Below, piece after piece: positions 2 to 23,479 of a stretch of 36,724 nucleotides of DNA. Within the stretch, counting starts at the first letter, position 1. Each line of letters begins with the position of its first letter. The position numbers were made by a program, and so were the translations under genes. The notes under the pieces are model-generated. The model was not told the origin of the DNA. It saw only the letters and a program-made list of their open reading frames with translations, and searched no databases. Source of the DNA: Alphaproteobacteria bacterium (GTDB lineage: Bacteria > Pseudomonadota > Alphaproteobacteria > SP197); the NCBI GenBank assembly GCA_022823765.1, contig JAJEHK010000094.1, forward strand, positions 1 through 36,724, written 5' to 3'.

Positions 2-244
2 GCGGCGATCAGGTTCTGGACGTCCATCCGCGCGGAGGCAGGCATCGAGGATGTGCGCCTCCATGACCTGCGTCACACGTACGCCTCTCTTGCCGTCATG
101 CAGGGAGAGAACATCCTCACCGTCGGCCGGCTGCTCGGTCACGCCAACCCCGCCACCACTCTCAGATACACCCACCTCGCCGACGGCGTGGTGGCCGAAG
201 CCGCCAGGGCCATGGGCGCCGTTCTCGGGAGGAACGACGCATGA
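2..244 (+). CDS. Tyrosine recombinase/integrase, C-terminal part (cut by window start)
   Basis: The reading frame is open from the window edge, so only the last 80 residues are visible. They hold the end of a phage-integrase catalytic domain: the HDLRH box (HxxR), then LLGHA with the second catalytic His, then TLRYTH with the nucleophilic Tyr. The family catalyses site-specific strand exchange through a 3'-phosphotyrosine intermediate. The stop codon overlaps the start of the next integrase as ATGA, so the two are translationally coupled. The visible part is clearly related to, but not identical with, the end of the downstream integrase. Its N-terminal arm-binding region lies outside the window, so whether the full gene is intact is unknown. 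Confidence 0.85.
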   Translation, partial: AAIRFWTSIRAEAGIEDVRLHDLRHTYASLAVMQGENILTVGRLLGHANPATTLRYTHLADGVVAEAARAMGAVLGRNDA

Positions 245-1374
245 AATGCAAACTGACCGATGCCCTCATCCGGAACCTCAAGCCGCAACCCCGGGAGTAC
301 ACGCTGCGCGATGCGATCGTTCCCTCGCTCGGGGTTCGGGTCCATCCGTCGGGCGGTCGCGGTTTCGTTCACATCGGCGGCGGAAGGAGGACATCGCTCG
401 GTCCGGCCGCGTTCAAGACAGTCAGGGAGGCCCGAAAGGAGAGCCTCGACAGACTGGCGACCGTCAACCACGACAGGACTCCGGCCCCGCTGTTCAGGGA
501 CTTTGCCGCCGGCCCATGGCGAGACTCCTGGCTCCATCGGTGCAAGCCCGGGACGATCCGATTGCGCAGCCGGGTTCTCGAGAACCGTCTGGCGCCCGCT
601 TTCGGGTCCCGTCCCCTCGACCGGATCACGCCCGTCATGGTGCATCGCTGGTTCGACGACTACAGCAGAACGGCGCCCGGCGGCGCCAATTCCTGTCTGA
701 AGATCCTGCGCCACATCCTCAACCACGCGGTTGCCTGTGGCCACATCGCCTCGAACCCGGCAAGGTCGGTCAGGCCCAACCCCCGCAGAAAACTCACCCG
801 CTTCTTGTCGCGGGAGGAACTTCATCGACTGCATGGCGTACTGGATCGCCATGAGAATCTTGGGAAGATCACGCGAGCACAGCGCATGCAAATTGACGTC
901 ATTCGGCTCCTCATCCTCACCGGATGCCGCAAGAACGAGATTGTCCGCCTGAAGAAGCAGGAGGTAGTCGCCAACAGTCTTCGGCTTCGCGACAGCAAGA
1001 CCGGTCCCCGAACGGTATTCCTCAATGCCCAGGCCCGGGCCATCATCGAGCGCCGCATCCCCGGCGACAGCGCATTTGTCTTCCCGTCGCCCCGTGATCC
1101 CGGCCGACCGCTCCACGACCATCTTGCGCTCTGGTACGTCATCCGCAAGGAGGCAGATATCGTGGATGTCCGCCTTCACGATCTGCGTCACACATATGCC
1201 AGCCATGCCGTGATGCTGGGAACGCCGCTCCCCGTCGTCGCAAGACTCCTCGGTCACTCGCATTCGACCATGACCTTGCGTTACGCCCACACCGGCGACC
1301 GGGAGACCGAAACTGCCGCTGAACGAATTGGTGGATTAATCTCAGAACTACTCGAGATGCCGACAAGCATTTGA
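241..1374 (+). CDS. Tyrosine recombinase/integrase, full length
   Basis: A 377-aa phage-type integrase. Residues 1-60 resemble the DUF4102 arm-type DNA-binding region. A SAM-like core-binding domain follows at about 90-185, and the catalytic domain occupies about 190-370. All visible catalytic residues are present: R230 (TGCRKNE), H313 and R316 (HDLRH), H339 (LLGHS) and nucleophile Y348 (TLRYAH); a Lys in the SKTG turn fits the beta-hairpin lysine. The start is set by the ATGA overlap with the preceding recombinase. Two coupled integrases suggest a multi-recombinase integration module of an island rather than a single phage integrase. The attachment target is not established here; a weak att candidate overlaps the stop codon. 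Confidence 0.93.
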   Translation: MKCKLTDALIRNLKPQPREYTLRDAIVPSLGVRVHPSGGRGFVHIGGGRRTSLGPAAFKTVREARKESLDRLATVNHDRTPAPLFRDFAAGPWRDSWLHRCKPGTIRLRSRVLENRLAPAFGSRPLDRITPVMVHRWFDDYSRTAPGGANSCLKILRHILNHAVACGHIASNPARSVRPNPRRKLTRFLSREELHRLHGVLDRHENLGKITRAQRMQIDVIRLLILTGCRKNEIVRLKKQEVVANSLRLRDSKTGPRTVFLNAQARAIIERRIPGDSAFVFPSPRDPGRPLHDHLALWYVIRKEADIVDVRLHDLRHTYASHAVMLGTPLPVVARLLGHSHSTMTLRYAHTGDRETETAAERIGGLISELLEMPTSI

Positions 1375-5350: not shown

Positions 5351-5355
5351 CGCTT

Positions 5356-7353: not shown

Positions 7354-7484
7354 GGCGCCAGACACTACACGACAACACCGGCACGGTCGCACTCCGGTCT
7401 CTGGGCAGTGTGGACTATCCGGGCTTTCGCATCATATCATGGCGCTCAGCAGAAAGTGCCAGACTGAATCGGATTGACCGGTCG

Positions 7485-8894: not shown

Positions 8895-9519
8895 GATCGC
8901 CGACGGTACCAAGCAGGCTGTGTAGCGCATTGACGAACGGCGTGGCCCGTCTTGACCGACTTGCTCGTTGGAACGCCTCACGTACTACCGCTTCTGTTGC
9001 ACCGGCATGACCATGAACCGAAACCAACATCGACAAAAACAGATCCTGCGGCTTCGACGATGGCAACGGGAACGCTGGATACTTCTCCGGCATGCCACCG
9101 GGAACCCCATCCAGCGGAATCCTCCCTTGGGCGACACGACGACAAGGCTGAATGTGAGGATAGCTGTGAGCTCGTGATGGTCCGTCCGCCGGTTCAAACC
9201 TGAAGGCCAAAAGAAGATTGCCGTGCACCAGAAGCACCAGATCGAACGCTAAGGTCCAGGAGCATATCCCGTCGACCTTTCTGGGAACGAAAAAGCAGCG
9301 TTCTATACCGATATGCCCGCACTGCGGGATCGGTATGATTTTGGAAGGGTTCGTCGTTTGTAGGTCGCTGATCAGGCTACGGACTTCTTCCTCGCTCTCA
9401 ACGATGCTGCTTTGCAGGTTCCGCAACGCCTTGGATCTTCGTAAGCCGTCTAACCTTTCATTCCAGTCCGCAAATCCGAACAGGGCGTATTGCGTTACAA
9501 ACTCAATCAGATCATCCAT
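8872..9519 (-). CDS. Unknown protein, third gene of the GHKL-receiver cassette
   Basis: About 215 aa from the ATG at 9519, which follows GGAAG at 8 nt and lies 28 bp after the receiver-gene stop. A longer open frame runs upstream through the receiver gene, so starts at 9585 or 9603 are possible. The region SRAHSYPHIQ, then PEKYPAFPLP, then QDLFLSMLVSVHGHAG has the look of a conserved core with histidines and prolines, but I cannot name the family. Paired cysteines and histidines occur (PQCGHIGIERC and PHIQPC). It probably forms one transcription unit with the two signalling-like genes upstream, and could be the effector or target of that cassette. Its end overlaps the convergent adenine methyltransferase. 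Confidence 0.6.
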   Translation of the reverse strand: MDDLIEFVTQYALFGFADWNERLDGLRRSKALRNLQSSIVESEEEVRSLISDLQTTNPSKIIPIPQCGHIGIERCFFVPRKVDGICSWTLAFDLVLLVHGNLLLAFRFEPADGPSRAHSYPHIQPCRRVAQGRIPLDGVPGGMPEKYPAFPLPSSKPQDLFLSMLVSVHGHAGATEAVVREAFQRASRSRRATPFVNALHSLLGTVGDPKATGPK

Positions 9520-9547
9520 CGCAAGGCTTCCAGACGGCTCTCGGCCG

Positions 9548-10837
9548 TCACATTGCGAGTCGCGTTCTAGGGACGTAGTGCCACCCATCAAGATTCGCCA
9601 CATATCGGCGATTCCAAGCACCCTCCAACTGGGTAACAAACTCTGCAGCATGCGACCCATCCGGCTGTTCGAAAGGCCGAAATTCAGAAACGTCCTCGCA
9701 AAACACGACATCCGGCCACTCCTCGCCGCTTGTCTCTAGAAGACAGGCGTTGAGGTTTTCATTGTCCCTCAACGCGTCCCACCATAAGCACGGTCGTGAT
9801 ACCCACTGCGTCCCGCTGTAAAGGGCCGATTTCAAGTGCTCGTCGTAGAGTGTCTGGTCAAGCCCGAAAGGTGCACCGTCGTAGGTCACGTTCGCCGTAG
9901 CATTCCATGCCTCCACGTCGTTGGCTCTGTCGCCAAGCAGGAACGGCATGCGCATAACGAGATGCGGCACGTCGACCAGTACGTTCTGCGGACCCAGAAC
10001 ATCGCGGCGAAACCAGAAATCGATATCCGCTGCGATGGCTCGTGCAATCATGTGTCTGATACCAAGCGCTCCGTCATCAAGTTTGCGTTCCAGTGCTTCC
10101 CTTTCGGACTTGACGGCCAGAGAGCGGTTCGACGCGCGAAACACGTCCAGAAATGTGACACCCACAAACTCATCCTCACCTTCGCCGTTCGTGGAGCCGA
10201 CGGCCGCCTGTGAGAGAATGGATCGGGCCTGTCGTGTGAGAGCATCAACGGAATCACTGTCGAACTTCAGTGTCCTCAGCAAAGGTTCATTGAGGTTCTC
10301 GCACACATTCTGGATTTGGTGTCGCCGGGTACGGGCTGCGTCAGTCAGTGAGGGCCAGTACCAAGGGAGGAAGTCTCCCGTTACGGTCTCCTTGTTTCGT
10401 GCCCACAGTGCGGGTTCAGCCAAGTGACTCTCGTTCACTGCCAGATCGGCCTTGGAGGGATAGTCGCCAATGAGATATCGAAGGTCGAAGTCAACATCCG
10501 GGTTCTTGTTGACAGAAACGATGTAAGGCGCTGACGAGAACGACCGGATGTAACCGATGATCGCTTCTGCAGTGAGGCGAACCCCGTCGATAGCGAGATG
10601 CGCGAGGTTGTTGTCGACAACGATGATGTCGGCATCATCAAAATCTGACGCCGGGCACTCAACGGTTGCCTCAGACTCCAAGACCTCGTTGGCCTCCGCA
10701 ATCAGTTGCGTAATGCACTCTTTCAATTGACCGCCACACAACCGATGCAATTCAACATGCTGCGGAACGCCGCGCGAGGCGGTATCTGCCAGGGTTGCGT
10801 CGTCATCTGGAAGATCGTCACATACGAGAATTCTCAT
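9548..10837 (-). CDS. Receiver-domain protein with large C-terminal domain of unknown function
   Basis: 429 aa. Residues 1-135 look like a CheY-type receiver: MRILVCDD (acidic D7/D8), IIVVDNNLA with a phospho-acceptor candidate D75, and PYIVSVNKN with the conserved Lys (K111). The long insertion between strands 1 and 3 is atypical. Residues 150-429 match no output domain I know; they contain a helical stretch, then NVLVDVPHLVMRMPFLLGDR and a tryptophan-rich C-terminus. No helix-turn-helix is evident, so DNA binding is not suggested. The start overlaps the GHKL gene end by 20 bp and GAGG precedes ATG 10837; an ATG four codons upstream is an alternative. Coupling to a histidine-kinase-like protein suggests phosphotransfer from it. 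Confidence 0.75.
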   Translation of the reverse strand: MRILVCDDLPDDDATLADTASRGVPQHVELHRLCGGQLKECITQLIAEANEVLESEATVECPASDFDDADIIVVDNNLAHLAIDGVRLTAEAIIGYIRSFSSAPYIVSVNKNPDVDFDLRYLIGDYPSKADLAVNESHLAEPALWARNKETVTGDFLPWYWPSLTDAARTRRHQIQNVCENLNEPLLRTLKFDSDSVDALTRQARSILSQAAVGSTNGEGEDEFVGVTFLDVFRASNRSLAVKSEREALERKLDDGALGIRHMIARAIAADIDFWFRRDVLGPQNVLVDVPHLVMRMPFLLGDRANDVEAWNATANVTYDGAPFGLDQTLYDEHLKSALYSGTQWVSRPCLWWDALRDNENLNACLLETSGEEWPDVVFCEDVSEFRPFEQPDGSHAAEFVTQLEGAWNRRYVANLDGWHYVPRTRLAM

Positions 10838-13085
10838 CGCCTGCCTCATTCCACGACATCTCGAACGTTGTAGTATAGCCTTTGAGAGGCTTGATAAAGC
10901 GAACCCGCGCCGCCCGCCTTCGCGCGATCATACGCACGATCGTCAACCCAAGGCCCTGCCCGCCCATGGCGATAGAGCGATTGTCATCGGAGATCGTCAT
11001 ACGGCGTTCGAAGGGTTCGAAGAGTTGCGGTGTTTCCTTCAGGGGCAAGCCCAAGCCTTGGCCAGTGTCACTCACGCGAAGCCAGGCCCGGCCGTGACGT
11101 GGCCGGTCCCCGTCGAACGAGACAGCGGACCTCCGGCTGTCAAGCATTGCGTTCCATGCGTTGGCAAGAACGTTCTGCAACAGTGCGTTCCACTCAGCAA
11201 ACGAGCCTGTCGGGAGATATAGATCAGGAGACACGCCTCGCACATCAATGTCGACGCGCGGTAGCAACGGTCGCATCGCACGCACGACCTGTTCGACCAG
11301 AGGGCGCGCCCTGAGCCTGTCTAACGCCACCCTGTCCTCACCCGATAGAAGCGGAGCGAACAATTCCTGCAGTGAGTCGAACCGGCCCCGCATCACCTCG
11401 AAATCCAATGCTACTGCCTCAAGATCGGTCAAGTCGGGCGCTTCCCCGAGCCGACGAAGTTTCGTGCCCATACGAGAGAGCATTTGGCTCTGACGAGCAA
11501 GTTCATGGCTGAAGGCAAGGGCTGTCATACCTGCCGCTGCCAAGGGAGCAAGCAGTGCAGCCCGCATGTCCTGAGACTTCTCTTCGGCGGACGCCGCCCG
11601 ACGTGCGGCGACTATCTCACGTCGTGCCTCTGAATATGCGCGACGGGGCATGCTGGCCTTCGCTCGGTCAAGAGCCTGCACTGCTCTGTCGTACTTGCGA
11701 GTTGGAGGTTCCTTGGACTCGGTCGACTCCGCAGCCCTCAGTGATAGAGCTCGAAATCTGCTGGCGTAAAGATCCAGTGAGAACCGCACGAGGTCGCGCA
11801 ACTGAAAGAATGCGCGATTGGTTTGGAGGCGATCACGTCCAGACTGGATTTGGAGCCACTCTGCAGGTGAGTCATCCGTCTCCTGCGCCGCCGCACGCTC
11901 ACCATTGGTATCGACCTCCACGGTACCCAGCAACCTACCTGCGGCCGGAAGGTCCTCCATGTAAGGTCCTCGGATGTTCAACCGATCAGGAAGCAGCGAC
12001 GACACGCTCAACCGGCGTCCGTGATCTCGGGCGACGTTCAACCAGTCCTGCCCTGTCTCATCGCTGCCGACACCATAGTAAGGCAGACGGAAACCGGCAT
12101 CGTAGACCGAGACGTTGCCAAACTTCCGAAGGTACTCGCGCATGTCATTAACGGAGAGGCCACCCTCCTGTCGCCCAGTCGCTCGGAAAATCAGAATCTC
12201 AAACGTGGTTCCGTTGACGAGTGGCCGCTCTCGTGCGGTTTCCCGATTTAGCGGCATCTCAACCTGCTCCACAAAAACGGATGACTCATCAATCCCGTCC
12301 GGATAACCGGCTTTGAACTCAACAGTCACGATAGCCTTGTCCCCGCGCATCCCATTCTCAAGATGGCCAGTAACGCGCGCTCGCCAGTTTGCTCGCAGTA
12401 TCCGGAGCATTTTGTCGAACGGGACCCGTGCGTTCTCAATACTCGGCGCCTCGATCTCCACAATGAAATCGTCCGCACCGCGTGCAGCTCCAGTGCCTGT
12501 AACCGGCGCAAACGGCGAACGGAGAAGCCAAATCTCCTCCCCTAGACTCCGTATGGCATCGGCATCCCAGGCGGTCTTCAGATCTCGCAACTCAATTCTC
12601 GTGCCCGTTGGCCGATGATCTGGAAACTCTATCCGCTCCGACCTCATTTCCCACTCAACTTCGACGATGCTGAGGTCCTCGCCACGATCAACTTGCCGCC
12701 AATCCACTACCACGAACAGGAGTTCATCAGGATGTGCTGTTGCAACGGATTCGATCGTCATTTCGCGAGCAAGAAACTGTGCGGACAGCCGTCCGATACC
12801 CTTGGATCCCGTCAACGTGCGTTTCAGTGTCCTCGACGTTATCTGATCGACCTTGTGAGTGGTGCCGATACGCATCCAATGATCGAGGAACTCGTCCTTT
12901 GACATTCCGTGACCGTTGTCGGCGATCACAATCCGGTCGTGCTCAATCTTGATCTCGCAGACGTTAGCATCTGCGTCGTAGCCGTTCTTGATGAGCTCGG
13001 CCAAAGCAATGTGCGCCTTACCGATCAGGCGATCACCGAGTTCCTGGAGGAGCGCCGCGTCGACAGCAAATTTCTGACGGTTCAC
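10818..13085 (-). CDS. Dual GHKL ATPase: HSP90/MORC-like N-terminus fused to histidine-kinase-like C-terminus
   Basis: 755 aa with two separate GHKL nucleotide-binding modules. Module 1 (1-200) has an N-box LAELIKNGYDADA (E30, N34), G1 DNGHGM (56-61) and G2 GSKGIGRLS (93-101), as in HSP90, MutL and MORC proteins. A middle region (200-430) with SVYDAGFRLPYYG resembles the transducer part of such ATPases. Residues 460-510 are predicted coiled coil. Then ALAFSHELARQ (H527) resembles a phospho-accepting DHp helix, followed by a HATPase_c domain: N-box NVLANAWNAM, G1 DTGQGLGL (673-680), G2 GGQGLGLTI. There are no membrane segments, so it is cytoplasmic. The next gene encodes a receiver, implying a two-component relay with an unusual ATPase sensor. 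Confidence 0.85.
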   Translation of the reverse strand: MNRQKFAVDAALLQELGDRLIGKAHIALAELIKNGYDADANVCEIKIEHDRIVIADNGHGMSKDEFLDHWMRIGTTHKVDQITSRTLKRTLTGSKGIGRLSAQFLAREMTIESVATAHPDELLFVVVDWRQVDRGEDLSIVEVEWEMRSERIEFPDHRPTGTRIELRDLKTAWDADAIRSLGEEIWLLRSPFAPVTGTGAARGADDFIVEIEAPSIENARVPFDKMLRILRANWRARVTGHLENGMRGDKAIVTVEFKAGYPDGIDESSVFVEQVEMPLNRETARERPLVNGTTFEILIFRATGRQEGGLSVNDMREYLRKFGNVSVYDAGFRLPYYGVGSDETGQDWLNVARDHGRRLSVSSLLPDRLNIRGPYMEDLPAAGRLLGTVEVDTNGERAAAQETDDSPAEWLQIQSGRDRLQTNRAFFQLRDLVRFSLDLYASRFRALSLRAAESTESKEPPTRKYDRAVQALDRAKASMPRRAYSEARREIVAARRAASAEEKSQDMRAALLAPLAAAGMTALAFSHELARQSQMLSRMGTKLRRLGEAPDLTDLEAVALDFEVMRGRFDSLQELFAPLLSGEDRVALDRLRARPLVEQVVRAMRPLLPRVDIDVRGVSPDLYLPTGSFAEWNALLQNVLANAWNAMLDSRRSAVSFDGDRPRHGRAWLRVSDTGQGLGLPLKETPQLFEPFERRMTISDDNRSIAMGGQGLGLTIVRMIARRRAARVRFIKPLKGYTTTFEMSWNEAGDENSRM

Positions 13086-13696
13086 GTACCAACTCCGATC
13101 AGCGATCGAATGCGCCGTTGCGGTCGGACGAGTTCGGTAAAGTTCTCTGATGTCAACATGCTTCCTCGTTCACACGCAGGTACTCGTCAACAAACTCGTT
13201 CGTGTAATGGTAAATTGTCAAGTCATCCTTCGCGGAAGAACGGCACTCCGACTGTATGGACCAACACAGTACTCTCATGCATCGATCACCAAATTTTTCG
13301 TTCAAATGCCACTGCGTCTCACAATAGCCCTACATTAGTGCACACGCGAGTGCAAACTAGTTTGTGCTAGGGTCCGTCTTGCTGGTCCGTGAGCAGCACT
13401 TGAGCCATCGCAACTACCAGACCAAATTGGTCCCGCGCGCCAATGGATCGGCGGACTTTCCCGTATGTAGAAGAACCCGACGCGGGGCTGGGATTGCAGG
13501 GGTGTATTGCGCGCGCGCATGCGCCACACCGGATTGGCGCCAAGACGTTAGACAAGCTTGGGCCGTAAGTACGAAAGCTACTTGTTGAAGCTATAGCTGA
13601 CTACTGGCCGGATCGGGAACTGGTGGTGATCCTGTTGTTGTGAAAAACTGGCACGACGTTGACAATTCAGATTGAATTCGGCCTGTCCTGCGTCCC
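13086..13696. other. Gene-free upstream region of the GHKL cassette
   Basis: About 610 bp between the start of the GHKL gene and the end of the DUF262 gene, both on the minus strand. Short open frames exist on both strands but none has a good start signal or recognisable content. It is less GC-rich than the genes around it and probably carries the promoter of the GHKL-receiver cassette, although I find no convincing -35/-10 pair. A compound palindrome lies at 13339-13364. Confidence 0.45.
13339..13364. promoter_or_regulatory. Overlapping palindromes, candidate operator
   Basis: TGCAC (13339-13343) pairs with GTGCA (13350-13354). Directly overlapping is a perfect 12-bp palindrome CAAACTAGTTTG (13353-13364). 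It lies in the otherwise empty region 255 bp upstream of the GHKL gene. The assignment as a protein-binding site is inferred from symmetry only. Confidence 0.35.
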
Positions 13697-15607
13697 TTAG
13701 GCGGCCAACGTCAAGGCGCGTTCTTCCATGTCGCCTTCGTCTTCCATAACATCATCGCCTTCGTCCTGCACGTCACCGCGGTAGATGGTGATTCCCGTGG
13801 CATTTTCGATTAACTTCAGCAAACGTTCCTGTCGATCATTCACAAACTTCTCGAAATCGTTGGTCTGCAAGAGCGTATAATCGATCAGGTGCGTCGCGAG
13901 ATAGTGTTCAAGTGTGTCGGAAGACATCGGATCGTGCTCTCCCGAACCCGTTTGCAGTTTGGCAAGGTACTCGGAGGGTGCGATGCCTCCAAGTCGCCGG
14001 TTGGTCCGATAGGAAAGGGGTGTCTTGTTGATGATCGAATCGTAGACCTTCCAGTCCTTGTCGTTCTTGTTACACCAGTCGCGTGGAAAGATGTGATGGA
14101 TATCGACGTTTTCGCCAAAGAAGACAGTGTGACTGAACTGTTGGCCCGACGAGAAGTCCTTAGCGCCTTCCCGCATTAACAACGCGTTGACTCCCTTGTA
14201 AGCGGCGGACAGGCGCATCCGCATACTGAAGAGTCGGTCGGCACGGAACGTTGCGTCAGTGACCGTTGATGGTTCGGGACCGCCGGCGATCCATTCAGGA
14301 ATTTCCATGAAATCCTTGGCAATCCGGTTCTCAACTGTGGAGCCGTACAACTCGCCGAACACCCCAGTCCAATACCAACGGAGAAGCTTGTCGCGCACCG
14401 ACGCGTCATGCCATCGGTCGCCGACCTCGGCCAAAACGGCTGCAAGCGGAACAACCTGGGACTGATAGGGAAGATCGAACGCTCGATAGATGTGCTGCAT
14501 GTTAAGAAACTTCGCGGCTTCCATGAAACCTCGTTCGACCCGTTCTTCGTAAAAACGGTAAGCTCTGAGCGGCAACGCCAGGAGAGCGCGGCGGTTCCCT
14601 GACACTGCCGGTAGTTCCTTGCCGGTCTTGCCTGCGGCTTCGGCCTTGCGGCGCATGTCGCGGGTGTGGAACAACGAAACGGCCTGGAGAAAATCCGTGT
14701 TGCCGACGTTGGACAGAATGCCGTGCGCTTGGCCCGGTGCACTGAAGGCAGTCTGCAATCTGCCGTGTCGGCCCACCGCTTCGTCGGAACCGTACCAGTC
14801 CTTGCGGAGTTCGTGGCCTTCGGCGGCATACATTGCAGTGACCAATTCGAAAGCATCGAGCGGTTTGCCACCGGTGTTAACCTTTTCGAACACAACGCAC
14901 ACGGCTTCTTTGCTGGTTTGCTTGTCAAGCGCGATAACCGGGACTTGATACTTCGTGAATTGGTTGATGATCTGCTCGTTGAAGGGCTTGATAATATCCC
15001 ATTTTTCGTTGAAATCGCCGGTCTTCACCGCGTGATCGATGAACTCCTTTTGCCAATCGTTCCAGTCGAATACTCGGGAGACAGGGTACATCAGGTTTTC
15101 GAACTCGGCCTCACGAGTGGAAAGATCGAGTTCCACGGTGCGACTGAAGGGTCCTCGAACGATACGGTCGTCGGGAATGCCGACGATAGCATCCTCCCGG
15201 TTGGCTGTGTCATCGAGTGCCGTCAGGATATCGATGTAGAACCAGCGCCTTACCTTCTTGCGCTTCGGCGTTACCGTTTCCACAACCTTATTGCGGATCG
15301 TGACCTGATAGAGGGACGTGATGCGCTGCTGGCCGTCTAGCAGAAGAGATTGCGGCATTGCTTTTCTCGCAACAAGTGGGGCGCCCTCGACCGTCCGCGG
15401 CTTGAACTCGACAGCTCCACCGTGCTCTAAGGTCATCAGGGCGCCGATAGGAAAGCCGCGCGACACTGAGGCTATCAGACTCTTGATTCTATCTTCATCC
15501 CAAACCCAGCTTCTCTGGAAGTCTGGCAACTGCAGGTGGCCGGCATGGCAATCACGCAGGAGTTTGCCGAGCGCGTACGGATTGGTCTTGAAGGTGGCTT
15601 CAGACAT
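13697..15607 (-). CDS. DUF262/DUF1524 nuclease, GmrSD/SspE-like restriction protein
   Basis: 636 aa. The N-terminal DUF262 domain shows LQLPDFQRSWVWDEDRI (26-41) and the signature LLLDGQQRITSLYQ (DGQQR at 91-95), the nucleotide-dependent part of GmrS-like proteins. The C-terminal DUF1524 domain has VDIHHIFPRDW (H504, H505), an HNH-type nuclease motif. Related proteins include the type IV enzyme GmrSD, BrxU and SspE, which act on modified or phage DNA; the substrate here is unknown. The ATG at 15607 is preceded by AAGGGAAG and begins right before the domain; an open extension of 35 codons upstream is less likely. No ssp/dnd or BREX genes are visible, so a stand-alone defence role is most likely. 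Confidence 0.88.
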   Translation of the reverse strand: MSEATFKTNPYALGKLLRDCHAGHLQLPDFQRSWVWDEDRIKSLIASVSRGFPIGALMTLEHGGAVEFKPRTVEGAPLVARKAMPQSLLLDGQQRITSLYQVTIRNKVVETVTPKRKKVRRWFYIDILTALDDTANREDAIVGIPDDRIVRGPFSRTVELDLSTREAEFENLMYPVSRVFDWNDWQKEFIDHAVKTGDFNEKWDIIKPFNEQIINQFTKYQVPVIALDKQTSKEAVCVVFEKVNTGGKPLDAFELVTAMYAAEGHELRKDWYGSDEAVGRHGRLQTAFSAPGQAHGILSNVGNTDFLQAVSLFHTRDMRRKAEAAGKTGKELPAVSGNRRALLALPLRAYRFYEERVERGFMEAAKFLNMQHIYRAFDLPYQSQVVPLAAVLAEVGDRWHDASVRDKLLRWYWTGVFGELYGSTVENRIAKDFMEIPEWIAGGPEPSTVTDATFRADRLFSMRMRLSAAYKGVNALLMREGAKDFSSGQQFSHTVFFGENVDIHHIFPRDWCNKNDKDWKVYDSIINKTPLSYRTNRRLGGIAPSEYLAKLQTGSGEHDPMSSDTLEHYLATHLIDYTLLQTNDFEKFVNDRQERLLKLIENATGITIYRGDVQDEGDDVMEDEGDMEERALTLAA

Positions 15608-16056
15608 AATGGTAGACTTCCCTTTCGAGGATTGCACCGAATAGGATGGCAAGAGAACATCGATAGTCGCGAGCTTCGAAGACTGCAGCATGGACCAACC
15701 GACCGGATCCAAGCGCGATTCTTGGAAGTTGTGAGTGGCCTGTCAACAGCATCGAATTCACTCGCCGAGCGATTGGAATTCCAGGCAACGATTCTGACGT
15801 TTGATTCGCCGCACATTGAAGCGAGTTGTGCAGCCTGCGCTGTTTCACTAGCGAACGAGTAGCGGGGCATTGTTGCGCTCCCGTCTTCAGTGGTGAAAGA
15901 CGTGTACCAGACGCGCGACGCACCGATCTGAACATGGCTGCATTGCATGGTTGGCAGCCGGCGGGCGCCATGCTCCAATGGCGGCATGATCGACAGTTGC
16001 GGGATCATGCCATTCCGGTGCCGGGTGACGCGTGTTCCCCTGCCCGACGGCTTCTG
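15608..16056. other. Divergent intergenic region between DUF262 gene and relaxase
   Basis: About 450 bp with no supported gene, although the relaxase frame stays open back to 15826. Divergent promoters are expected here. Relaxase genes often lie next to their oriT; the only strong symmetry seen is the inverted repeat at 15983-16011. Confidence 0.45.
15983..16011. promoter_or_regulatory. Perfect 9-bp inverted repeat upstream of relaxase, candidate oriT hairpin or operator
   Basis: GGCATGATC (15983-15991) and GATCATGCC (16003-16011) are perfect inverted copies with an 11-nt loop, ending 45 bp before the relaxase ATG. MobF relaxases bind a hairpin next to the nick site, so this is an oriT candidate; a transcriptional operator is equally compatible. 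Confidence 0.4.
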
Positions 16057-19000
16057 ATGGTCGCCACGGTCACCCGCCTCACCGAGGCCGCCTCGACGGT
16101 CCACTACTTCGAGGCGGACGGCTATTACGCGAAGAACGACGCCGAGCACCGCAAGGCGAGCCGCTGGCACGGCAGGGGCGTGGCGGCCCTGGGCCTCCAC
16201 GGCCCCGTCAAACCCCGCCGCTTCGAGGAGGTCCTCTCCGGCCGCATTCCCGGCACGAAGACCCGCCTGGGCCGCCTGCGCGACGGCAAGCACGAGCACC
16301 GCCCGGGCCTCGACATCACCTTCTCGGCCCCGAAGTCGGTGTCGCTGGAGGCCCTGGTCCACGCCGCCCCGAAGGCCGGCGCCCGGATCGTCCGCGCCCA
16401 CGACGAGGCGGTGACGGCCACCCTCGACTTCATCGAGAGGGAGCTGCTGGAGACCCGCGGCTGGGATCCCGCCACCCGCAGACGTCCCCGCATCAAGGCG
16501 GAAGGCCTGGTGGCCGCCACCTTCCGCCACGTCGCCAGCCGCAACCTCGATCCGCAGCTTCATACCCACAGCGTCGTCGCCAACATGACACGGAACGCCG
16601 AAGGCGAGTGGCGCAGCGCCGATTTCATCAGGATCGAGCGCGCCAAGCTGCTGATCGGCGCCCACTACCGGGCCGAGCTGAAGCGTCGCATCGAGGCCCT
16701 GGGCTACGCCACGGTTGAGACCATGGTGGGAAGCGTGCCGGGATTCGAGATCGCCGGCTACGACAGGGCGACGCTGAAGGCCTTCTCGACCCGCCGGGCT
16801 GAAGCCCTGGCATGGGCACGGGAACGCAACCTCGACGAGCGTTCGGCCGCCGTCATGCAGCAGGCGGTGCTCTACACCCGCAAGCGCAAGGACGAGCCTT
16901 CACGGGAGGAGCTCAGCAACATCTGGAAGGCCCGCATGGCGGAGTTGGCGCCCCGCAACCGGCGCGTCTCGCGCAACCGCCCGGCGTCCCACACGCGGCT
17001 CGACCGCGAGCGCTGGCATCTCGAGCGCCGGGACGCCGCCAACCGGCGCTCCCCCTCGGCGCTTCACGCGGTGCGCCGGGCGGTCGAGCACCTCGAGGAG
17101 CGGCACACGGTCTTCACCGCCGACATGCTGCGGGCCCTCGTCCTGGCGCCGGGCCGCTGGACCCTGGACGAGATCGACGCCGCCATCGACCGGCTGCGCA
17201 GGGAGGGCCACCTCGTCGAGGCGAGGGCGGCGCGTTCCGACCGCGCCTTCGTGACGGACCGGGCGGTGACGGCGGAACGCGCCGTCCTGCGCTGGATGAA
17301 GAAAGAGAGCGATGCACCCGGCCGGTTCGTCATCGATGCGGGTCGCGTCGAACGTCACCTCGAGGCCGGCACGCTCAACGACGGGCAGAAGGCGGCCGCC
17401 CGCACCCTGCTGCTGTCGTCCCGCCATGCCTGCGGCGTGCAGGGCCACGCGGGGACGGGGAAGACGACGATGCTGAGACAGGTGGTCGAGCTGGCCGGGG
17501 CGGAGAGGATCGTCGCGCTGGCTCCCTCGAGCAGCGCCGCCCGCACGCTCGAGCGCGAGACCGGGATCGGCACGAGGACGCTGCAGTGGTTCCTCACCCG
17601 CTACCGGGATGTCGGCGACGGCTGCGCCGACGCCCGGACTCTTGCGCGTGCCCGCGAGGCTCTGGAGGGAACCCTTCTCGTGGTGGACGAGGCGTCGCTC
17701 GTCAGCATGGCGCAGATGCACAGTCTCACCCGCATTGCCGAGGCGACGGGCATCGCCCGCGTCGCCCTGGTGGGCGATAAGGGCCAGCTGCGCTCGGTCG
17801 AGGCGGGACAGCCGTTCCGGGTGCTGCAGAAGGCCGGCATGGAGACGGCGGTGATGGACGAGGTCCTGCGGCAGCGGAACGAGAGCCTCAAGGCCGCGGT
17901 GCTTCACATGATCGAGGGCAAGCCGGAACTCGCGGTTCGTGAACTCGGTCCCGGCGTCCTGGAGATGGATGCCGACGAGCTCGGTCCCCGGGCGGCCGCC
18001 CTGTGGCTCGATCTCGACAAGGAATCGCGGGACGCCACGAAGGTTCTCGCCCCGACCCATGCCCGGCGCCGGGAGATCACGCAGAGCATCCGCGAGGGCC
18101 TGAAGGCCGAAGGGAGCCTCCACGGGCGGACGCTTCATGTCGAGCGCTACGTCAATCTTCACCTCACCCGGGCCCAGAAAGGGGACCTCGACAACTGGCG
18201 AGAGGGCGACGTCGCCGTCTTCCATGCGGACGTCTACGGCGTCCAGGCGAAGTCGGGCGACATCTTCGGCGTCATCGGATCGGAAGGGGAGAAGGTGCTT
18301 CTGAAGCACCCGGACGGCAAGACCCGGCGTGTCGATCCGTCGAAGTACCTGCGCTACCGGGTCGAACTCTTCGAGACGGAAGGAATCGAACTCCAGGCCG
18401 GGGAGAGGATCCGCTGGACCCGCAACGACAAGAAGCGCGATCTTCTCAATGGCGAGGAAGCCCGGATCCTCTCCATCGGCAAGCGGAACCTGCGGCTCCT
18501 GACAGCAGACGGCCGCACGCTGACCCTGGCCCATGACGATCCCCAGCTTCACTTCATCGACCACGCCTGGACCTCGACGGTCCATGCGGCCCAGGGGATG
18601 ACCTGCGACCAGGTGATCGCCGTTCTCGACGCCGACCAGGGCGCCATCGCCGGCCAGGCGGCGTTCTATGTCGAACTGACCAGGGCCCGCGACAACGCCG
18701 TGCTGCTGACCGACGACCGCGACGGTCTCGTGGAGGCCCTCGAGACGGCGGCCGGCGACGAACTCTCGGCTCTCGAGGCCATCGGCCACCAGTTCCGGGG
18801 TGAGACGTCGACAGCCATGGCGGAGAGAAGGGTGGCCGTGGCGGAGAAGAAGGCCATTCCACCCATGGGTCTGGCTGAAGCAAAGGCCTGGCGGGACGAG
18901 GTCCGCGCCACCCTGGAACGCCATCTCGATCGTCGTCTCGCCGAACGCGATGGTCTTCTCGACCGCGCCCGCAGCCTGAGGATGGACGACAATTCGGCGC

Positions 19001-21879
19001 TGGCCGGCACGGAAGGCCACGATGCGTGGCGGGAGCAGGCGCTGGCGACCGCCGGGGCCTGCCGCGAGTACACGGACGAGGGCGCCATCGCCGAAAGGGC
19101 GGGTCTCCTCGAGGCGCTGGTGGCCTTCGACGACCGTGTCGGCGCGTTCGACCGCGACCGGCAGCGTCATGCCCGGGCGGCCGGGGCGGCCGGCGAGGAC
19201 GTCGTCTTCTTTCCCGGGATCGAGGATCTCGTGTCCCGCGGCCGGGCGATCGTCGACGAGGCGCCGCGCCCCGGCGAGGTTCCCTGGACGCTGACCGGCT
19301 ATCTCGACATGGTCACCGATTCCCGGGCCCGGGCGGCGGCGGAGGCCGCGGCCATGGCCGAATTCGGCCGGGTGACGGGCAACCTTGACGCCGTGAGGGA
19401 CGAACGGCGGCGCCTGAGGGATGTGGCGAAGGGTGAGCCCCTTCACTCGACCGAGGGCTACGGGGCGTGGCGGGAGAGGGCCGCCGCCGTCCTCGACGCG
19501 TGGGACCGGGCGAACGTGCCGGAAGGCGAACGGGAGCGCGCGTACCGTGCCGGGACACGCCGTCTCCGGGAGGCCATGGATTATGATCGCGAGGTGGCGA
19601 CGCTGCTGGGCGACTGGGCCGAACACGAGAAGCGGGCTTCGGCACAGGGCATGGAGGCGCTCGATGTCGCCGCGGACGATCCGCTCCTGACGCGAATCCG
19701 CCACCTCGTCGAGGCCGCGCCCGAAGGCGAGACGCCGCCTCAAGCCCTGACGTCGCTCCTTGCCCGCCGCCAGGCGCGGATCGGGGAACGGGAGCGTGCG
19801 GCCCGGAGAATCGCACGGGCCCTCGACGACTACGCCGGCCGCCACGCGCGTCCCGGCGACAGGCCGGAACTGCAGGCCGCACATGTCATGACCTGGTGCG
19901 AAGGGACCAGGGAGGCCATCACCACCTGGCGGGCGATGACGGATCCGGACGCGAGGGATTCGGCGCTGTCGGAGACGGCGGCGGTCCTCGAGGACCTCAT
20001 CGCCTTCGAGGAACGCGCCCGCGGCCTCGACACGAGGTGGCGCGACGCCGGCAGGACGGCGCATCCCTTCTCCGGCACCGATGGCGAAGTCCTGGCCTCG
20101 GACCTGCGGGCACTCGAGGCCGGCGTTCCCCGCCACGGGATGATGCTGCCCACCCTCAGGCGGGCGCTGGGCGCGCTCGAATCTCACGAAAAGGCCCAGG
20201 CCCGGAACGCCGAACTGAAGGTCGCCGCCGCCACCATCGCACGGGGTCTCGACGACTACCGCGCCCGCCACGCATTGATGCAGGACACCATCAAACACCT
20301 CGGCGCGTTGCGGGACTGGTGCGGCGTGACGGAGGAAGCCATCGGCTCCTGGCGGGCGATGACGGACCCGGGCGAAAGGGATACGGCGCTGTCGGAGAAG
20401 GCCGCGGTCCTGGAGTCCCTCATCGGCTTCGAACGACGTGCCCTCGACGTCGCCGTCAGATGGTGGAACGCCAGGGGCGCCGACGGCACGGCCAACCCGT
20501 TCCCCGGCGAAGGAGGCGATGACCTTGCCCGGGACCTGCGTGCGCTGGAGGCCGGCGTTCCCCGCCACGCGATGATGCTCCCCACCCTCCGGCGGGCGCT
20601 GGGCACACTCGTGCTTCACGAGAAGGCGCAAGCCCTCCAGGAGGAACTCCGGCGCGCTGCCGCCGCCGTCACGCGGGCCCTTGACGACTATCCGGCCCTC
20701 CACGCGCCGACCGAAGACACGCTCGGACAGCCTCGCGCCATCCGGGAATGGTGCGGCACGGCGCATGAGGCCGTTCGCGCCTGGCGGGCGATGACGGACC
20801 CGGGCGCGAGGGATCCGGCGCTCTCGGAGAGGGCGGCGGTCCTGGAGTCCCTCGTCGCCTTCGAGGAACGCGCCGGAGAGGTGGTCCGGAGGTGGTGGCG
20901 CAGCCGCGCCGAGGGCGCGGCGAACCCGTTCCTCGCCGATGGAGGCGATGCCCTGGCCCGGGACCTCAAGAGGCTCGAGGCCGAGCGTCCTCCCCGCTCG
21001 ATCATCCCTCACGATCTCCGTGAACCTCTGGCGGCCCTGGCCGAACACGAAAAGTCCGCCGCCCGGGTGAGGGAACTGCTGCGGCGCGCAGCGGAGGTCG
21101 ACGACGCGCGGCGCTCCCTGCTGGAACGCGAGGGCGCGAAATCGCGGCCGCTCAACCGCCGTCTCAACCGGGCCTGGAAGCGCTGGCGCGAGGCGGCGCA
21201 CGCGGTGGTGGCCGACATCGAGGCGGCGGACGCGGCGCTGATCGCCCACGTCGACACGGAGGGCGTGGCGGTGCGCGTCAGGGCCGAGCTTGCGGCCAGC
21301 GACCGTCTCGACGGCCTGCCGGGCTGGCTGCTGCTGCGTCTCCACGACAATGCGGTGGCTGCCGGGTCCGCCATGGATCCGGCCATGACGGAGGCCTGGG
21401 GCGGGATCGTCGACGAGATGCGCCGCCTCGACGGACGCCTCGGGGACAAGGATCCGCGGCGCCCGGTGCTGCGTGGTGAAGTCAATGCCTGGCACGGCCT
21501 CCAGGAAACCCGGCGCAAAGTTGCCGAACTCCTCCGGGAGCTGACGGTTCACAACGCCCGGATCTCGTCGCTCGAGGACGCGGCAGGACGCGAGGCGCTC
21601 CCCCTGCGGCAGAGCCTCGCCTGGGCGAAGTGGTACAACGGCTCCAGGACGCTCGAGGAGCAGGCCCGCGCGGTGCTGGCCGGCGGCGGCGACCATGGGC
21701 GGGTTCTCCACGACGGCCAGGGCACGCGCCAGGCGATCGAGGAAGAGGTGGCCCGCTTCGCAGGAACGCGGGCCGCCCACGGAGAGCCCGACAACTCCGC
21801 GCGCCTGGAGAGAATCAGGAAGGAGTCGGAAGAGGAGCGCCGACAGCAGCGTCACCGCGGCCGCGGGTTCTCCCCGTGA
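16057..21879 (+). CDS. MobF-family conjugative relaxase-helicase (TraA/TrwC-like), extra-long
   Basis: 1,940 aa. Residues 1-300 form a TrwC-type relaxase: N-terminal tyrosines Y17, Y23 and Y24 (TVHYFEADGYY), DITFSAPKSVS, and the metal-binding HTH motif (LHTHSVVAN, H169/H171). Residues 440-880 are a RecD-like superfamily 1 helicase with Walker A GHAGTGKTT (K469), Walker B LLVVDEAS and STVHAAQGMT. It would nick one strand at oriT, stay covalently attached and unwind the DNA for transfer. The last ~1,000 residues are helical and contain three tandem repeats of about 143 aa. Typical TraA/TrwC proteins are 950-1,100 aa, so this tail is unusual. The start is the ATG just before the relaxase domain. 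The 3' end overlaps the convergent RHH gene by 28 bp. Confidence 0.92.
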   Translation: MVATVTRLTEAASTVHYFEADGYYAKNDAEHRKASRWHGRGVAALGLHGPVKPRRFEEVLSGRIPGTKTRLGRLRDGKHEHRPGLDITFSAPKSVSLEALVHAAPKAGARIVRAHDEAVTATLDFIERELLETRGWDPATRRRPRIKAEGLVAATFRHVASRNLDPQLHTHSVVANMTRNAEGEWRSADFIRIERAKLLIGAHYRAELKRRIEALGYATVETMVGSVPGFEIAGYDRATLKAFSTRRAEALAWARERNLDERSAAVMQQAVLYTRKRKDEPSREELSNIWKARMAELAPRNRRVSRNRPASHTRLDRERWHLERRDAANRRSPSALHAVRRAVEHLEERHTVFTADMLRALVLAPGRWTLDEIDAAIDRLRREGHLVEARAARSDRAFVTDRAVTAERAVLRWMKKESDAPGRFVIDAGRVERHLEAGTLNDGQKAAARTLLLSSRHACGVQGHAGTGKTTMLRQVVELAGAERIVALAPSSSAARTLERETGIGTRTLQWFLTRYRDVGDGCADARTLARAREALEGTLLVVDEASLVSMAQMHSLTRIAEATGIARVALVGDKGQLRSVEAGQPFRVLQKAGMETAVMDEVLRQRNESLKAAVLHMIEGKPELAVRELGPGVLEMDADELGPRAAALWLDLDKESRDATKVLAPTHARRREITQSIREGLKAEGSLHGRTLHVERYVNLHLTRAQKGDLDNWREGDVAVFHADVYGVQAKSGDIFGVIGSEGEKVLLKHPDGKTRRVDPSKYLRYRVELFETEGIELQAGERIRWTRNDKKRDLLNGEEARILSIGKRNLRLLTADGRTLTLAHDDPQLHFIDHAWTSTVHAAQGMTCDQVIAVLDADQGAIAGQAAFYVELTRARDNAVLLTDDRDGLVEALETAAGDELSALEAIGHQFRGETSTAMAERRVAVAEKKAIPPMGLAEAKAWRDEVRATLERHLDRRLAERDGLLDRARSLRMDDNSALAGTEGHDAWREQALATAGACREYTDEGAIAERAGLLEALVAFDDRVGAFDRDRQRHARAAGAAGEDVVFFPGIEDLVSRGRAIVDEAPRPGEVPWTLTGYLDMVTDSRARAAAEAAAMAEFGRVTGNLDAVRDERRRLRDVAKGEPLHSTEGYGAWRERAAAVLDAWDRANVPEGERERAYRAGTRRLREAMDYDREVATLLGDWAEHEKRASAQGMEALDVAADDPLLTRIRHLVEAAPEGETPPQALTSLLARRQARIGERERAARRIARALDDYAGRHARPGDRPELQAAHVMTWCEGTREAITTWRAMTDPDARDSALSETAAVLEDLIAFEERARGLDTRWRDAGRTAHPFSGTDGEVLASDLRALEAGVPRHGMMLPTLRRALGALESHEKAQARNAELKVAAATIARGLDDYRARHALMQDTIKHLGALRDWCGVTEEAIGSWRAMTDPGERDTALSEKAAVLESLIGFERRALDVAVRWWNARGADGTANPFPGEGGDDLARDLRALEAGVPRHAMMLPTLRRALGTLVLHEKAQALQEELRRAAAAVTRALDDYPALHAPTEDTLGQPRAIREWCGTAHEAVRAWRAMTDPGARDPALSERAAVLESLVAFEERAGEVVRRWWRSRAEGAANPFLADGGDALARDLKRLEAERPPRSIIPHDLREPLAALAEHEKSAARVRELLRRAAEVDDARRSLLEREGAKSRPLNRRLNRAWKRWREAAHAVVADIEAADAALIAHVDTEGVAVRVRAELAASDRLDGLPGWLLLRLHDNAVAAGSAMDPAMTEAWGGIVDEMRRLDGRLGDKDPRRPVLRGEVNAWHGLQETRRKVAELLRELTVHNARISSLEDAAGREALPLRQSLAWAKWYNGSRTLEEQARAVLAGGGDHGRVLHDGQGTRQAIEEEVARFAGTRAAHGEPDNSARLERIRKESEEERRQQRHRGRGFSP
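19813..21101 (+). repeat. Three tandem ~143-codon repeats inside the relaxase gene
   Basis: Repeat units begin at 19813, 20239 and 20671 (spacings 426 and 432 bp, all in frame). Each encodes ALDDY or GLDDY, then a WC motif, WRAMTDP, a conserved AAVLE..(I/V).FE segment, PF, an ALEAGVPRH-type segment (ERPPR in the third) and an EHEK/SHEK-type end. Units 1 and 2 are closest over the MMLPTLRRALG stretch. They look like recent internal duplications of a helical domain. Confidence 0.8.
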
Positions 21880-22328
21880 CCGCCATGGGTCTCGTCCGGC
21901 ATGTGGGAACGTCCCCTCGTCTCCAGCCAGGCCGTCACCATGCGCGCGCCGGAGCCGGCGCCGAACCGGCGGTCGAGGAGATTCTCGAGGTCCTCCCGGC
22001 GCCCCGCGTCGAGCATGGCGTCCATCGCTCTCGCCACGAGGAAGGCGATGCGCCTGTGGAGCATCGTCAGCAGCGGCGCCGCCGTCTCCGGCGGCACGGC
22101 CGGAAGGTGCGCCATGACCCGCCGGGCGGCCTCCATGACGGCCTCGTGGCGTTCCACGGCGAGGCCGGGATCCACGCGCGGCCGGGAGGGATCGACCGCC
22201 AGGGCCGCCTCGACGACGAAGGCCGAGACCGTCATGCCGGCGCGCGATGCCCGCGCCCTGATCCTTTCCCAGTCCTCGTCGGTGCAGGAGAGCGAGTGCT
22301 TGTCCGGTCTCGCCACCCTGCGCCTCAC
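21852..22328 (-). CDS. Ribbon-helix-helix protein 3 (MobC/relaxosome-accessory-like)
   Basis: 158 aa. The N-terminus (HSLSCTDEDWERIRARASRAGM then SAFVV) fits a ribbon-helix-helix DNA-binding fold of the MobC/TraY/NikA type seen beside relaxases: a short beta strand, helix, turn, helix. The rest is helical with HRRIAFLVARAMDAML. The GTG start overlaps the stop of the upstream RHH gene as GTGA. The 3' end overlaps the end of the convergent relaxase gene by 28 bp. Likely role: a relaxosome accessory factor or autorepressor. It shares the AGMxxSAF core with the next two genes upstream, so the three are paralogues. Confidence 0.7.
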   Translation of the reverse strand: MRRRVARPDKHSLSCTDEDWERIRARASRAGMTVSAFVVEAALAVDPSRPRVDPGLAVERHEAVMEAARRVMAHLPAVPPETAAPLLTMLHRRIAFLVARAMDAMLDAGRREDLENLLDRRFGAGSGARMVTAWLETRGRSHMPDETHGGHGENPRPR

Positions 22329-22633
22329 GAATCCGCCTCCGGCGTCTCCATGCGGCAGAGAAGCGCCAGGGCGTCGAGCACGGACATGCCGAGATCCGGC
22401 GCCGGCGCCATCAGGCGCTCCGCCATCCCGGCAGTCGCCGAGAGATGACCGAGGAGAGCCTCCCCGTCATCCGCCGCCGGCAGCGTCTCCGCGCCTGCCG
22501 GCTCGTCGTGGAGCGCGCAGGCGACGATGAAGGCCGAGCGGCTCATGCCCGCAGCCTTCGCCCGCCTGGTGATGATCGCCTGCCGCTTCGCCGAACAATA
22601 GTAGTTGCGCTGCCGGGCCCGGCCGCCGGTCAT
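22325..22633 (-). CDS. Ribbon-helix-helix protein 2 (paralogue)
   Basis: 102 aa. A basic N-terminus (RARQRNYYCSAKR) leads to QAIITRRAKAAGMSRSAFIV, the same RHH-like helix-turn-helix core as the flanking genes, followed by an acidic, hydrophobic tail. CAGGAG precedes the ATG, which overlaps the upstream stop as ATGA; its own stop overlaps the downstream GTG. The strict 4-nt couplings suggest balanced co-production, perhaps as heteromers. It is presumably a DNA-binding relaxosome or regulatory protein; the target may be the box array just upstream of the operon. Confidence 0.65.
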   Translation of the reverse strand: MTGGRARQRNYYCSAKRQAIITRRAKAAGMSRSAFIVACALHDEPAGAETLPAADDGEALLGHLSATAGMAERLMAPAPDLGMSVLDALALLCRMETPEADS

Positions 22634-22932
22634 CTCCTGAGCCGTCCCGCCAGCGCCAGGCGGGCCTCCACGTGCTCGTTGACGGCGTTCCAGGTCTCCG
22701 GTTCCTCGGCGAGGCTCAGCCGCTCGATCTCCTCGAGACAGGCCAGAGAGCGCTCCATGCGGGCCAGCGTGTCGCCGATGTGGGTGCCGTCGCCTTCAAC
22801 GTTGTGAGCCGCGAGGCGGTGGATTATGAAGGCCGAGACGCGCATGCCGGCGGCGGCCGCGGTCTCCTTCAGATCCTGCCATTCGGCATCGGTCATCATC
22901 ACCGTGTGCGGCTTCCTCGCGATGTCGTTCAT
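22630..22932 (-). CDS. Ribbon-helix-helix protein 1 (first gene of the RHH operon)
   Basis: About 100 aa from the ATG at 22932, which follows AGGGGG at 4 nt; an open extension to 22983 runs into the box array and is less likely. KPHTVMMTDAEWQDLKE supplies the beta strand and first helix, and AAGMRVSAFIIHRL the second helix of an RHH-type fold. The C-terminal half is helical and acidic (LACLEEIERLSLAEE). It is the most upstream of three paralogues and lies 8 bp from the first TTGTGGTCAC-like box, a typical layout for autoregulation by direct-repeat-binding RHH repressors. Function is inferred from fold and context. Confidence 0.7.
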   Translation of the reverse strand: MNDIARKPHTVMMTDAEWQDLKETAAAAGMRVSAFIIHRLAAHNVEGDGTHIGDTLARMERSLACLEEIERLSLAEEPETWNAVNEHVEARLALAGRLRR

Positions 22933-22940
22933 GGGCCCCC

Positions 22941-23100
22941 CTGTGGTCATGTTGTGGTCACCGTGTCCGAGTGCGCCCGGCATCCGTTATGGTCACCTTG
23001 TGGTCACAGTCACCGATGGTGTCGGGTCCATCCTGGGGTCAACTTGTGGTCACTGGGACGACGCTTTGGACACACACGATTGTGGCGTTTTTGTGGTATC
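22941..23100. repeat. Phased direct-repeat array (TTGTGGTCAC boxes; 11-bp pairs every 46-47 bp)
   Basis: Box pairs start at 22941/22952, 22987/22998, 23033/23044 and 23080/23091. Within each pair the spacing is 11 bp, about one helical turn; between pairs it is 46, 46 and 47 bp. Exact TTGTGGTCAC occurs at 22952, 22998 and 23044; other boxes differ at 1-4 positions (CTGTGGTCAT, TTATGGTCAC, CTGGGGTCAA, TTGTGGCGTT, TTGTGGTATC). A degenerate ATGGGGTCAG at 23126 continues the period. Sequence between boxes is poorly conserved. The array abuts the RHH operon start, so it is probably the RHH binding platform and possibly part of oriT. Confidence 0.8.
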
Positions 23101-23370
23101 GGGTGATATCACTGATGGGCACTCGATGGGGTCAGGTCTCTGTGACCATAAAGAGGGCGATGGGTGTCTCCCAATTCTCACGTCAGGAGAAATTTACCGT
23201 GGGTTCACCATGAGTGCAAGTCAGCGGTGGGAAATGTGTGCGTCTGGCGCTCCCGGAACCGCGTGCTTTCTGCGGATCGTCTATCGAGGATGGATAGTTT
23301 TCCGCAAATGCAACTCCTGCCATATATCACTCTTATGTCTTGTGGGCATCGTGACCCCGCAACAAGGCGC

Positions 23371-23381
23371 TTGACGGCCCA
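23371..23381. repeat. Candidate attachment-site repeat, right copy (speculative)
   Basis: TTGACGGCCCA in the same orientation as the copy at 1371-1381, about 22 kb away, located between the last mobile-element feature and gshA. The match is too short to be significant alone. Confidence 0.2.
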
Positions 23382-23454
23382 TTCATACTTATGATAATGG
23401 GACGTATTCATGAGAGGCAAGGTAGGGCGTAGATCTGGCGTTGTGGCGTGTTTC

Positions 23455-23479
23455 GAGGTGACCTTGTGGTTCACACCTC
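23455..23479. promoter_or_regulatory. Inverted repeat enclosing a TTGTGGT box
   Basis: GAGGTG (23455-23460) and CACCTC (23474-23479) flank TTGTGGTTCAC (23464-23474), a variant of the array box. It may be an outlying binding site for the same protein or a weak terminator stem; it lies about 50 bp beyond the end of gshA. Confidence 0.35.

What the first reader, a model, noticed from the sequence alone, without database searches (positions are those of the whole stretch)
22941..23135. Phased array of paired TTGTGGTCAC boxes with 11-bp and 46-bp periods
Four box pairs (22941/22952, 22987/22998, 23033/23044, 23080/23091) keep an 11-bp internal spacing and a 46, 46, 47-bp pair period, with a degenerate fifth start at 23126. 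Spacers are poorly conserved, so selection seems to act on box positions. The array abuts an operon of three RHH paralogues and lies in the mobile-element half. It may be an operator and/or an oriT accessory platform loaded by one or several of the RHH proteins. I know of no described array with this geometry.
Basis: partly seen in the sequence, partly recalled or inferred. Interest (0 to 1): 0.75.

Follow-up and report, generated by a model that had tools for sequence, protein, structure and literature searches.

The report
RHH-protein docking array in mobile element
A mobile DNA element in an uncultured alphaproteobacterium carries a row of short, evenly spaced sequence boxes beside three small DNA-binding-protein genes; related elements keep the same paired boxes, in one branch even inside a protein-coding gene, so the row is a real docking site, most likely a self-control switch and part of the element's DNA-transfer start site.

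Summary
The array is real. Four 11-bp-spaced box pairs (TTGTGGTCA) repeat every 46-47 bp; none of 2,000 shuffles gave more than two pairs. The element looks like a mobilizable island: tandem integrases, restriction cargo, MobF relaxase, three NikA-like RHH genes, array, terminus, inserted in a ridA-like gene. Fourteen sibling copies in two other species of the genus keep the 11/35-bp pattern, starting 9-10 bp before the RHH1 ATG when that gene is intact. A second branch carries the same 11-bp pairs every 24 bp INSIDE the RHH1 gene, where one box is read in two frames (Thr-Thr and Pro-Gln), so selection is on DNA. In two siblings the boxes changed together to TTGAGGTCA; there RHH3 alone changed in its DNA-contact strand, at the residue aligned with Arc Asn11. 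Best reading: a multi-site RHH (probably RHH3) platform, autorepressor operator plus accessory arm of a MobF oriT, related in kind to TraY, TrwA and SmpO sites, with a new geometry. Binding, repression and transfer are inferred; the nic site was not identified.

The parts
22941..22960 (+). box pair 1 (CTGTGGTCA / TTGTGGTCA, 11 bp apart); overlaps RHH1 ribosome-binding region
22987..23006 (+). box pair 2 (TTATGGTCA / TTGTGGTCA)
23033..23052 (+). box pair 3 (CTGGGGTCA / TTGTGGTCA)
23080..23099 (+). degenerate box pair 4 (TTGTGGCGT / TTGTGGTAT)
23126..23134 (+). single degenerate box (ATGGGGTCA)
23143..23151 (-). inverted terminal box (TTATGGTCA), present in most clade-A relatives
22630..22932 (-). 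RHH1 (NikA-like; just below Pfam cut-off)
22325..22633 (-). RHH2 (NikA-like, PF21983)
21852..22328 (-). RHH3 (NikA-like, PF21983, plus C-terminal helical domain); candidate array binder
16057..21879 (+). MobF (TrwC/TraI-type) relaxase-helicase, convergent to the RHH operon (ORF opens at 15826; conserved part starts about 16057)
23194..23209 (+). conserved block B, TTACCGTGGGTTCACC (inverted repeat in several relatives); speculative nic region
23300..23319 (+). conserved block C, TTCCGCAAATGCAACTCCTG; TGCAACT also at the element's left end
23371..23398 (+). sigma-70-like promoter TTGACG-N16-GATAAT reading out of the right end (into int1 in a circular form)
23459..23477 (+). right terminus TGACCTTGTGGTTCACACC; relatives diverge beyond it and the empty site is found in three genomes
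241..1374 (+). tyrosine recombinase int2 (C-terminus of int1 at 11-226); left-end integrase pair

Best explanation
The array is a multi-site docking platform for the element's own RHH proteins, most likely RHH3. Dimers sit on adjacent boxes one helical turn apart as a co-operative pair, and several pairs plus one inverted box make a larger nucleoprotein complex. In the window's clade the complex covers the start of the RHH operon and should repress it. The same complex is inferred to be the accessory arm of the element's origin of transfer, loading the MobF relaxase at a nic site elsewhere in the 540-bp right end. Shown: conservation of the boxes, rigid 11-bp pairing, DNA-level selection, coupling to RHH triplets and MobF genes, co-ordinated box change. 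Inferred: which RHH binds, repression, transfer role.
For: Array kept in 14 sibling copies with 11/34-36 bp steps, often closed by an inverted box. In branch B the 11/13 boxes lie inside RHH1 and the same box is read in two frames (TT, PQ), using rare codons: PQ is CCA CAA in 12 of 14, expected 1.3%. RHH genes are NikA-like mobilization proteins facing a MobF relaxase. The right-end region is the only conserved non-coding stretch next to the transfer genes; nothing is conserved upstream of TrwC. Boxes in L039/L088 changed together to TTGAGGTC (10 of 12 boxes against 2 of 76); only RHH3 has a matching unique change in its DNA-contact strand, Ser12 to Ala/Thr. Four copies with broken RHH1 keep the array. 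Precedents: MobC of RA3 autorepresses and aids transfer (PMC4175270); SmpO sites include TGGGGTCA with a GNNNNC core (PMC8136818), which TGTGGTCA also fits; the F TraY train has two direct and one inverted site (PMC12117103).
Against: No binding data. No RHH-operon promoter is recognisable in the array. Array length varies from 0 to 5-6 pairs; one sibling with 55% RHH1 identity (L086) and several distant triplet loci have none, so it is not strictly required for the element family. In branch B the array is about 140-220 bp inside RHH1, away from any promoter, which weakens simple operator repression there. Nic was not identified. L039 and L088 share a genome and may reflect one event. Tandem units are not independent, so the codon probabilities are overstated.
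Confidence: 0.55

Rival explanations
1. Only a transcriptional operator: RHH proteins bind it to autorepress their own operon, and it has no role in DNA transfer.
For: In clade A the first box lies 9-10 bp from the RHH1 ATG and overlaps its ribosome-binding region; the minimal form in distant relatives (L177, L106) is a single pair or box at that place. RHH autorepression is common.
Against: Branch B keeps the boxes inside the coding region and none at the promoter. Four copies with broken RHH1 keep the array. Up to six pairs and a closing inverted box exceed what a simple operator needs.
Confidence: 0.25
2. A recombination or excision accessory site: arm-type sites for the tandem integrases, or sites for a directionality factor, near the right end.
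For: It lies within 540 bp of the right terminus, and the terminus itself contains GGTCA-like half-sites.
Against: No boxes at the left ends, and elements with the same type of terminus lack the array. TGCAACT blocks, found at both ends and in array-bearing and array-less elements, fit arm sites better.
Confidence: 0.08
3. A centromere-like or filament-nucleating site of ParR type that stabilises a circular, perhaps multicopy, form.
For: ParR are RHH proteins binding tandem direct repeats, 11 bp in R1 (PMC9426499); spacing here is also 11 bp.
Against: No ParM-like gene was seen beside the array, and the RHH genes match mobilization (NikA-like) families, not ParR.
Confidence: 0.07
4. A neutral tandem duplication that merely spread with the element.
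For: 46-bp and 24-bp units look like tandem copies; the spacer is also conserved.
Against: Boxes are far more conserved than spacers (0.91 against 0.64); the 11-bp pair persists through gaps of 13, 22, 35, 47 and 59 bp; two reading frames carry the same box; boxes change together.
Confidence: 0.03

Closest known systems
SmpO sites (ossA/ossB) in pWBG749-family oriT (PMC8136818, PMC4652767)
   Same: RHH accessory factor beside oriT; site TGGGGTCA with GNNNNC core; subtypes differ in site centre and RHH strand; array boxes TGTGGTCA / TGAGGTCA fit GNNNNC
   Different: SmpO has two sites 65-67 bp apart; here 2-6 tandem pairs, three RHH paralogues and a MobF relaxase
F-plasmid TraY train at oriT (PMC12117103)
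   Same: RHH units side by side on oriT of a MobF system, two direct and one inverted
   Different: Three contiguous sites only; no repeated 46-bp or 24-bp unit; none described inside a coding gene
R388 TrwA with TrwC (MobF)
   Same: RHH accessory protein with a TrwC-type relaxase; TrwA is described as having regulatory and oriT-processing roles
   Different: One RHH gene, few sites (own knowledge); family identity to RHH1-3 not tested
MobC of RA3 (PMC4175270)
   Same: RHH protein autorepresses its operon next to oriT and stimulates transfer
   Different: Single imperfect palindrome as operator; MobP relaxase
ParR/parC of plasmid R1 (PMC9426499)
   Same: RHH protein on tandem direct repeats of 11 bp
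   Different: Partition function with ParM; no 35-bp or 13-bp gaps alternating with 11-bp steps

Membership tests
NikA-like RHH mobilization proteins (PF21983) | Profile match above the curated cut-off | tested here: met
   RHH2 30.1 and RHH3 31.5 bits against cut-off 27; RHH1 26.5, just below. Foldseek best hit of RHH3 is the NikA N-terminal fragment 2ba3, but E 1.7
MobF relaxase | TrwC/MobF relaxase domain followed by SF1 helicase | tested here: met
   PF08751 250 bits; NF041492 MobF 248 bits against cut-off 100; helicase domains
Integrative and mobilizable element | Integrase, two ends and a precise empty site | tested here: met
   Right end and empty site, left end with int1-int2 on contig C5
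Integrative and mobilizable element | No own type IV secretion system | tested here: inconclusive
   No T4SS family among the window ORFs scanned, but the assembly breaks inside int1 and not every ORF was scanned
MobF oriT with RHH accessory sites | RHH sites near a nic site cut by the relaxase | tested here: inconclusive
   RHH-type sites and MobF gene present; nic not identified
MobF oriT with RHH accessory sites | RHH protein binds the sites and stimulates transfer | not testable with these tools
   needs gel shift and mating assays
ParMRC partition site | ParM-like gene next to the RHH gene | tested here: not met
   Neighbours are the MobF relaxase and, beyond the terminus, chromosomal gshA (named from its sequence)
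Integrase arm-type sites | Sites on att arms, kept wherever the integrase system is kept | tested here: not met
   No boxes at left ends; array-less elements share the terminus type

The most novel reading that the evidence does not exclude
The paired-box array is a movable relaxosome-loading lattice of a MobF mobilizable-element family. Its 11-bp pair is fixed while pair-to-pair distance is free, and in one branch it is written into the RHH1 gene, in two reading frames at once, so that a transfer-control DNA site and a protein linker share the same bases. Three RHH paralogues may co-assemble on it, with RHH3 setting specificity.
Probability: 0.3. Interest if true: 0.7.

Novelty: new variant of a known kind. 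Interest (0 to 1): 0.55.

Why it matters
It links a large family of multicopy, defence-carrying elements to a natural series of RHH binding sites: same box, several spacings, one specificity switch, one coding-embedded version. That makes RHH pairing rules, specificity change and paralogue division of labour testable from sequence. A 2017 review stated that no known canonical IME encoded a MobF relaxase (PMC5704250), so the host element is itself notable, though later literature was not checked exhaustively.

Tried and rejected
Plasmid and viral collections gave no RHH1 relatives. The exact pair pattern in viral contigs gave 19 single hits and no arrays. In 385 genomes of the class only the window's own pairs and one isolated one-mismatch hit were found; RHH1 profile hits in the order were confined to the genus. 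PDB sequence search gave no useful relative. Other MobF loci (G008, G014, G089) showed only GC-rich repeats. Block C was considered as nic but TGCAACT occurs at the left end too, so it is more likely an att-related or regulatory block. Block B contains GGTCTACC in several relatives and might be nic, but the inverted repeat is poor in the window. DNA direct repeats for attL/attR inside the window: none, because the left end is on another contig.

Full report
OBSERVATION. A weight matrix made only from relatives scores the window's boxes up to the maximum of 16.3 bits and finds four 11-bp pairs, against a shuffle mean of 0.0175 and maximum of 2 in 2,000. Tandem Repeats Finder does not report the array, because the boxes are short and the spacers have diverged.

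SETTING. The array starts 9 bp upstream of RHH1. RHH1, RHH2 and RHH3 overlap in one minus-strand operon, and all match the NikA-like mobilization family, RHH1 marginally. Facing them is a MobF relaxase-helicase. Left of it lie restriction-modification genes and a GmrSD-type gene and an integrase. All siblings end with TGACCTnnTGGkTCACACC or a close variant, after which their flanks differ. Three sister genomes have the uninterrupted site (...GGGGTGGCGnAACACC...), which puts the window's right end at about 23477, inside the start of a ridA-like gene next to gshA (gene names read from the translated sequence). The matching left flank lies on contig C5 of the same genome and runs into a tandem integrase pair, int1-int2; the window begins inside int1. 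Other left ends share ACACC-N5-CGCACC...GGTGCTAA and TGCAACT blocks but no boxes. Int2 homologues are numerous in G003 and G007 (56 and 36 matches, int1-type included).

RELATIVES. The host order holds only 16 genomes in the set searched, and RHH1 relatives occur only in this genus. Named records of G003 and G007 are metagenome-assembled 'bacterium EF100-94H03 bin56' and 'bacterium isolate RHO1_bin_48'. Clade A consists of the window, ten siblings (L039, L040, L041, L042, L082-L085, L087, L088) and four copies with broken RHH1 (L089, L109, L110, L176). Box starts step by 11 and then 34-36 bp (sometimes 47 or 59), with two to six pairs and in most an inverted box some 50-75 bp after the last direct one. 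The first box is always CTGNGGTCA, 9-10 bp from an intact RHH1 ATG, because it overlaps the ribosome-binding sequence. Branch B (L170-L175) has steps of 11 and 13 bp, with the array inside RHH1, between the RHH domain and the C-terminal part. Branch C (L107, L108) has pairs with a 22-bp gap. L177 has one pair, L106 one box, L073 one box; L043, L071, L074, L076, L086, L105, L180 and L181 have no array. All of these carry RHH genes, nearly all as triplets.

DNA-LEVEL SELECTION. In branch B the 24-bp unit is eight codons. Its two boxes are read in different frames, as Thr-Thr and as Pro-Gln. Pro-Gln is written CCA CAA in 12 of 14 cases although CCA and CAA make up 7% and 18% of Pro and Gln codons in sibling genes; Thr-Thr is ACC ACA in 12 of 20. 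Units copy one another, so these are not independent events, but protein selection alone cannot preserve one DNA word in two frames. L073 and L075 have the same protein without the repeat insert.

WHICH PROTEIN. In L039 all six boxes, the inverted one included, read TTGAGGTC or CTGAGGTC; in L088 four of six carry the same T-to-A change; elsewhere 2 of 76 do. RHH1 and RHH2 strands in L039 are identical to those of TTGTGG loci. RHH3 has KYALSC (L039) and KHTLSC (L088) instead of K[YH]SLSC. By alignment from memory this Ser matches Arc Asn11, a base-contacting residue. This favours RHH3, but it rests on two loci from one genome whose RHH3 are 78% identical, perhaps one event. AlphaFold2 of RHH3 gives two RHH helices plus a C-terminal helical domain (pLDDT 72.7; the strand is unresolved in the monomer); the best PDB fold match is NikA, not significant by E-value.

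MECHANISM. The parsimonious reading is a co-operative RHH platform. Repression is likely in clade A from position. A relaxosome role is inferred from the gene company, from the right end being the only conserved non-coding stretch beside the transfer genes, from array retention in copies with broken RHH1, and from published RHH accessory factors. Those copies lie at contig ends, so whether their relaxase genes are intact is unknown. A promoter near the end (23371-23398) reads outwards and would drive int1 in a circle.

COMPARISON. It works like the RHH accessory sites of conjugation systems: SmpO (site TGGGGTCA, GNNNNC core, specificity set by the RHH strand), TraY of F (two direct and one inverted unit) and MobC of RA3 (autorepression plus transfer stimulation). 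Tandem 11-bp RHH sites are also known from ParR/parC. Membership in a MobF oriT is not established, because nic and binding were not tested.

LIMITS. No wet data. Nic not found. MAG assemblies break inside these repeats. The literature library holds only open papers.

Noticed in passing
window 1-23477; L039, L214 (G007:C54): A multicopy element family with tandem tyrosine recombinases and a MobF relaxase, inserted at varied sites ending in ACACC; a MobF mobilizable element would be unusual by a 2017 review.
   Followed up: partly
window 2875-15712: Cargo with a type II restriction enzyme (2875-3657), two cytosine methylases, an HATPase/REase-like gene and a GmrSD-type gene.
   Followed up: partly
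window 19911-20966: 2.5 copies of a 432-bp tandem repeat within the C-terminal half of the MobF relaxase gene; homologues show matching internal repeats.
   Followed up: no
L110, L176, L089, L109 (G003 contigs C88, C50, C66, C27): Four copies of a 1.1-kb right-end segment, 84-89% alike, with broken RHH1 but the array, block B, block C, promoter and terminus kept.
   Followed up: partly
window 23300-23319; left ends L102, L214-L225: TGCAACT blocks at both element ends, deeply conserved; candidate integrase arm or regulatory sites.
   Followed up: partly
L083 12808-15400 (G003:C99): An integrase pair followed within 350 bp by the right end of a second element, at the start of a gene with a signal-peptide-like N-terminus that several copies use as target.
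   Followed up: no
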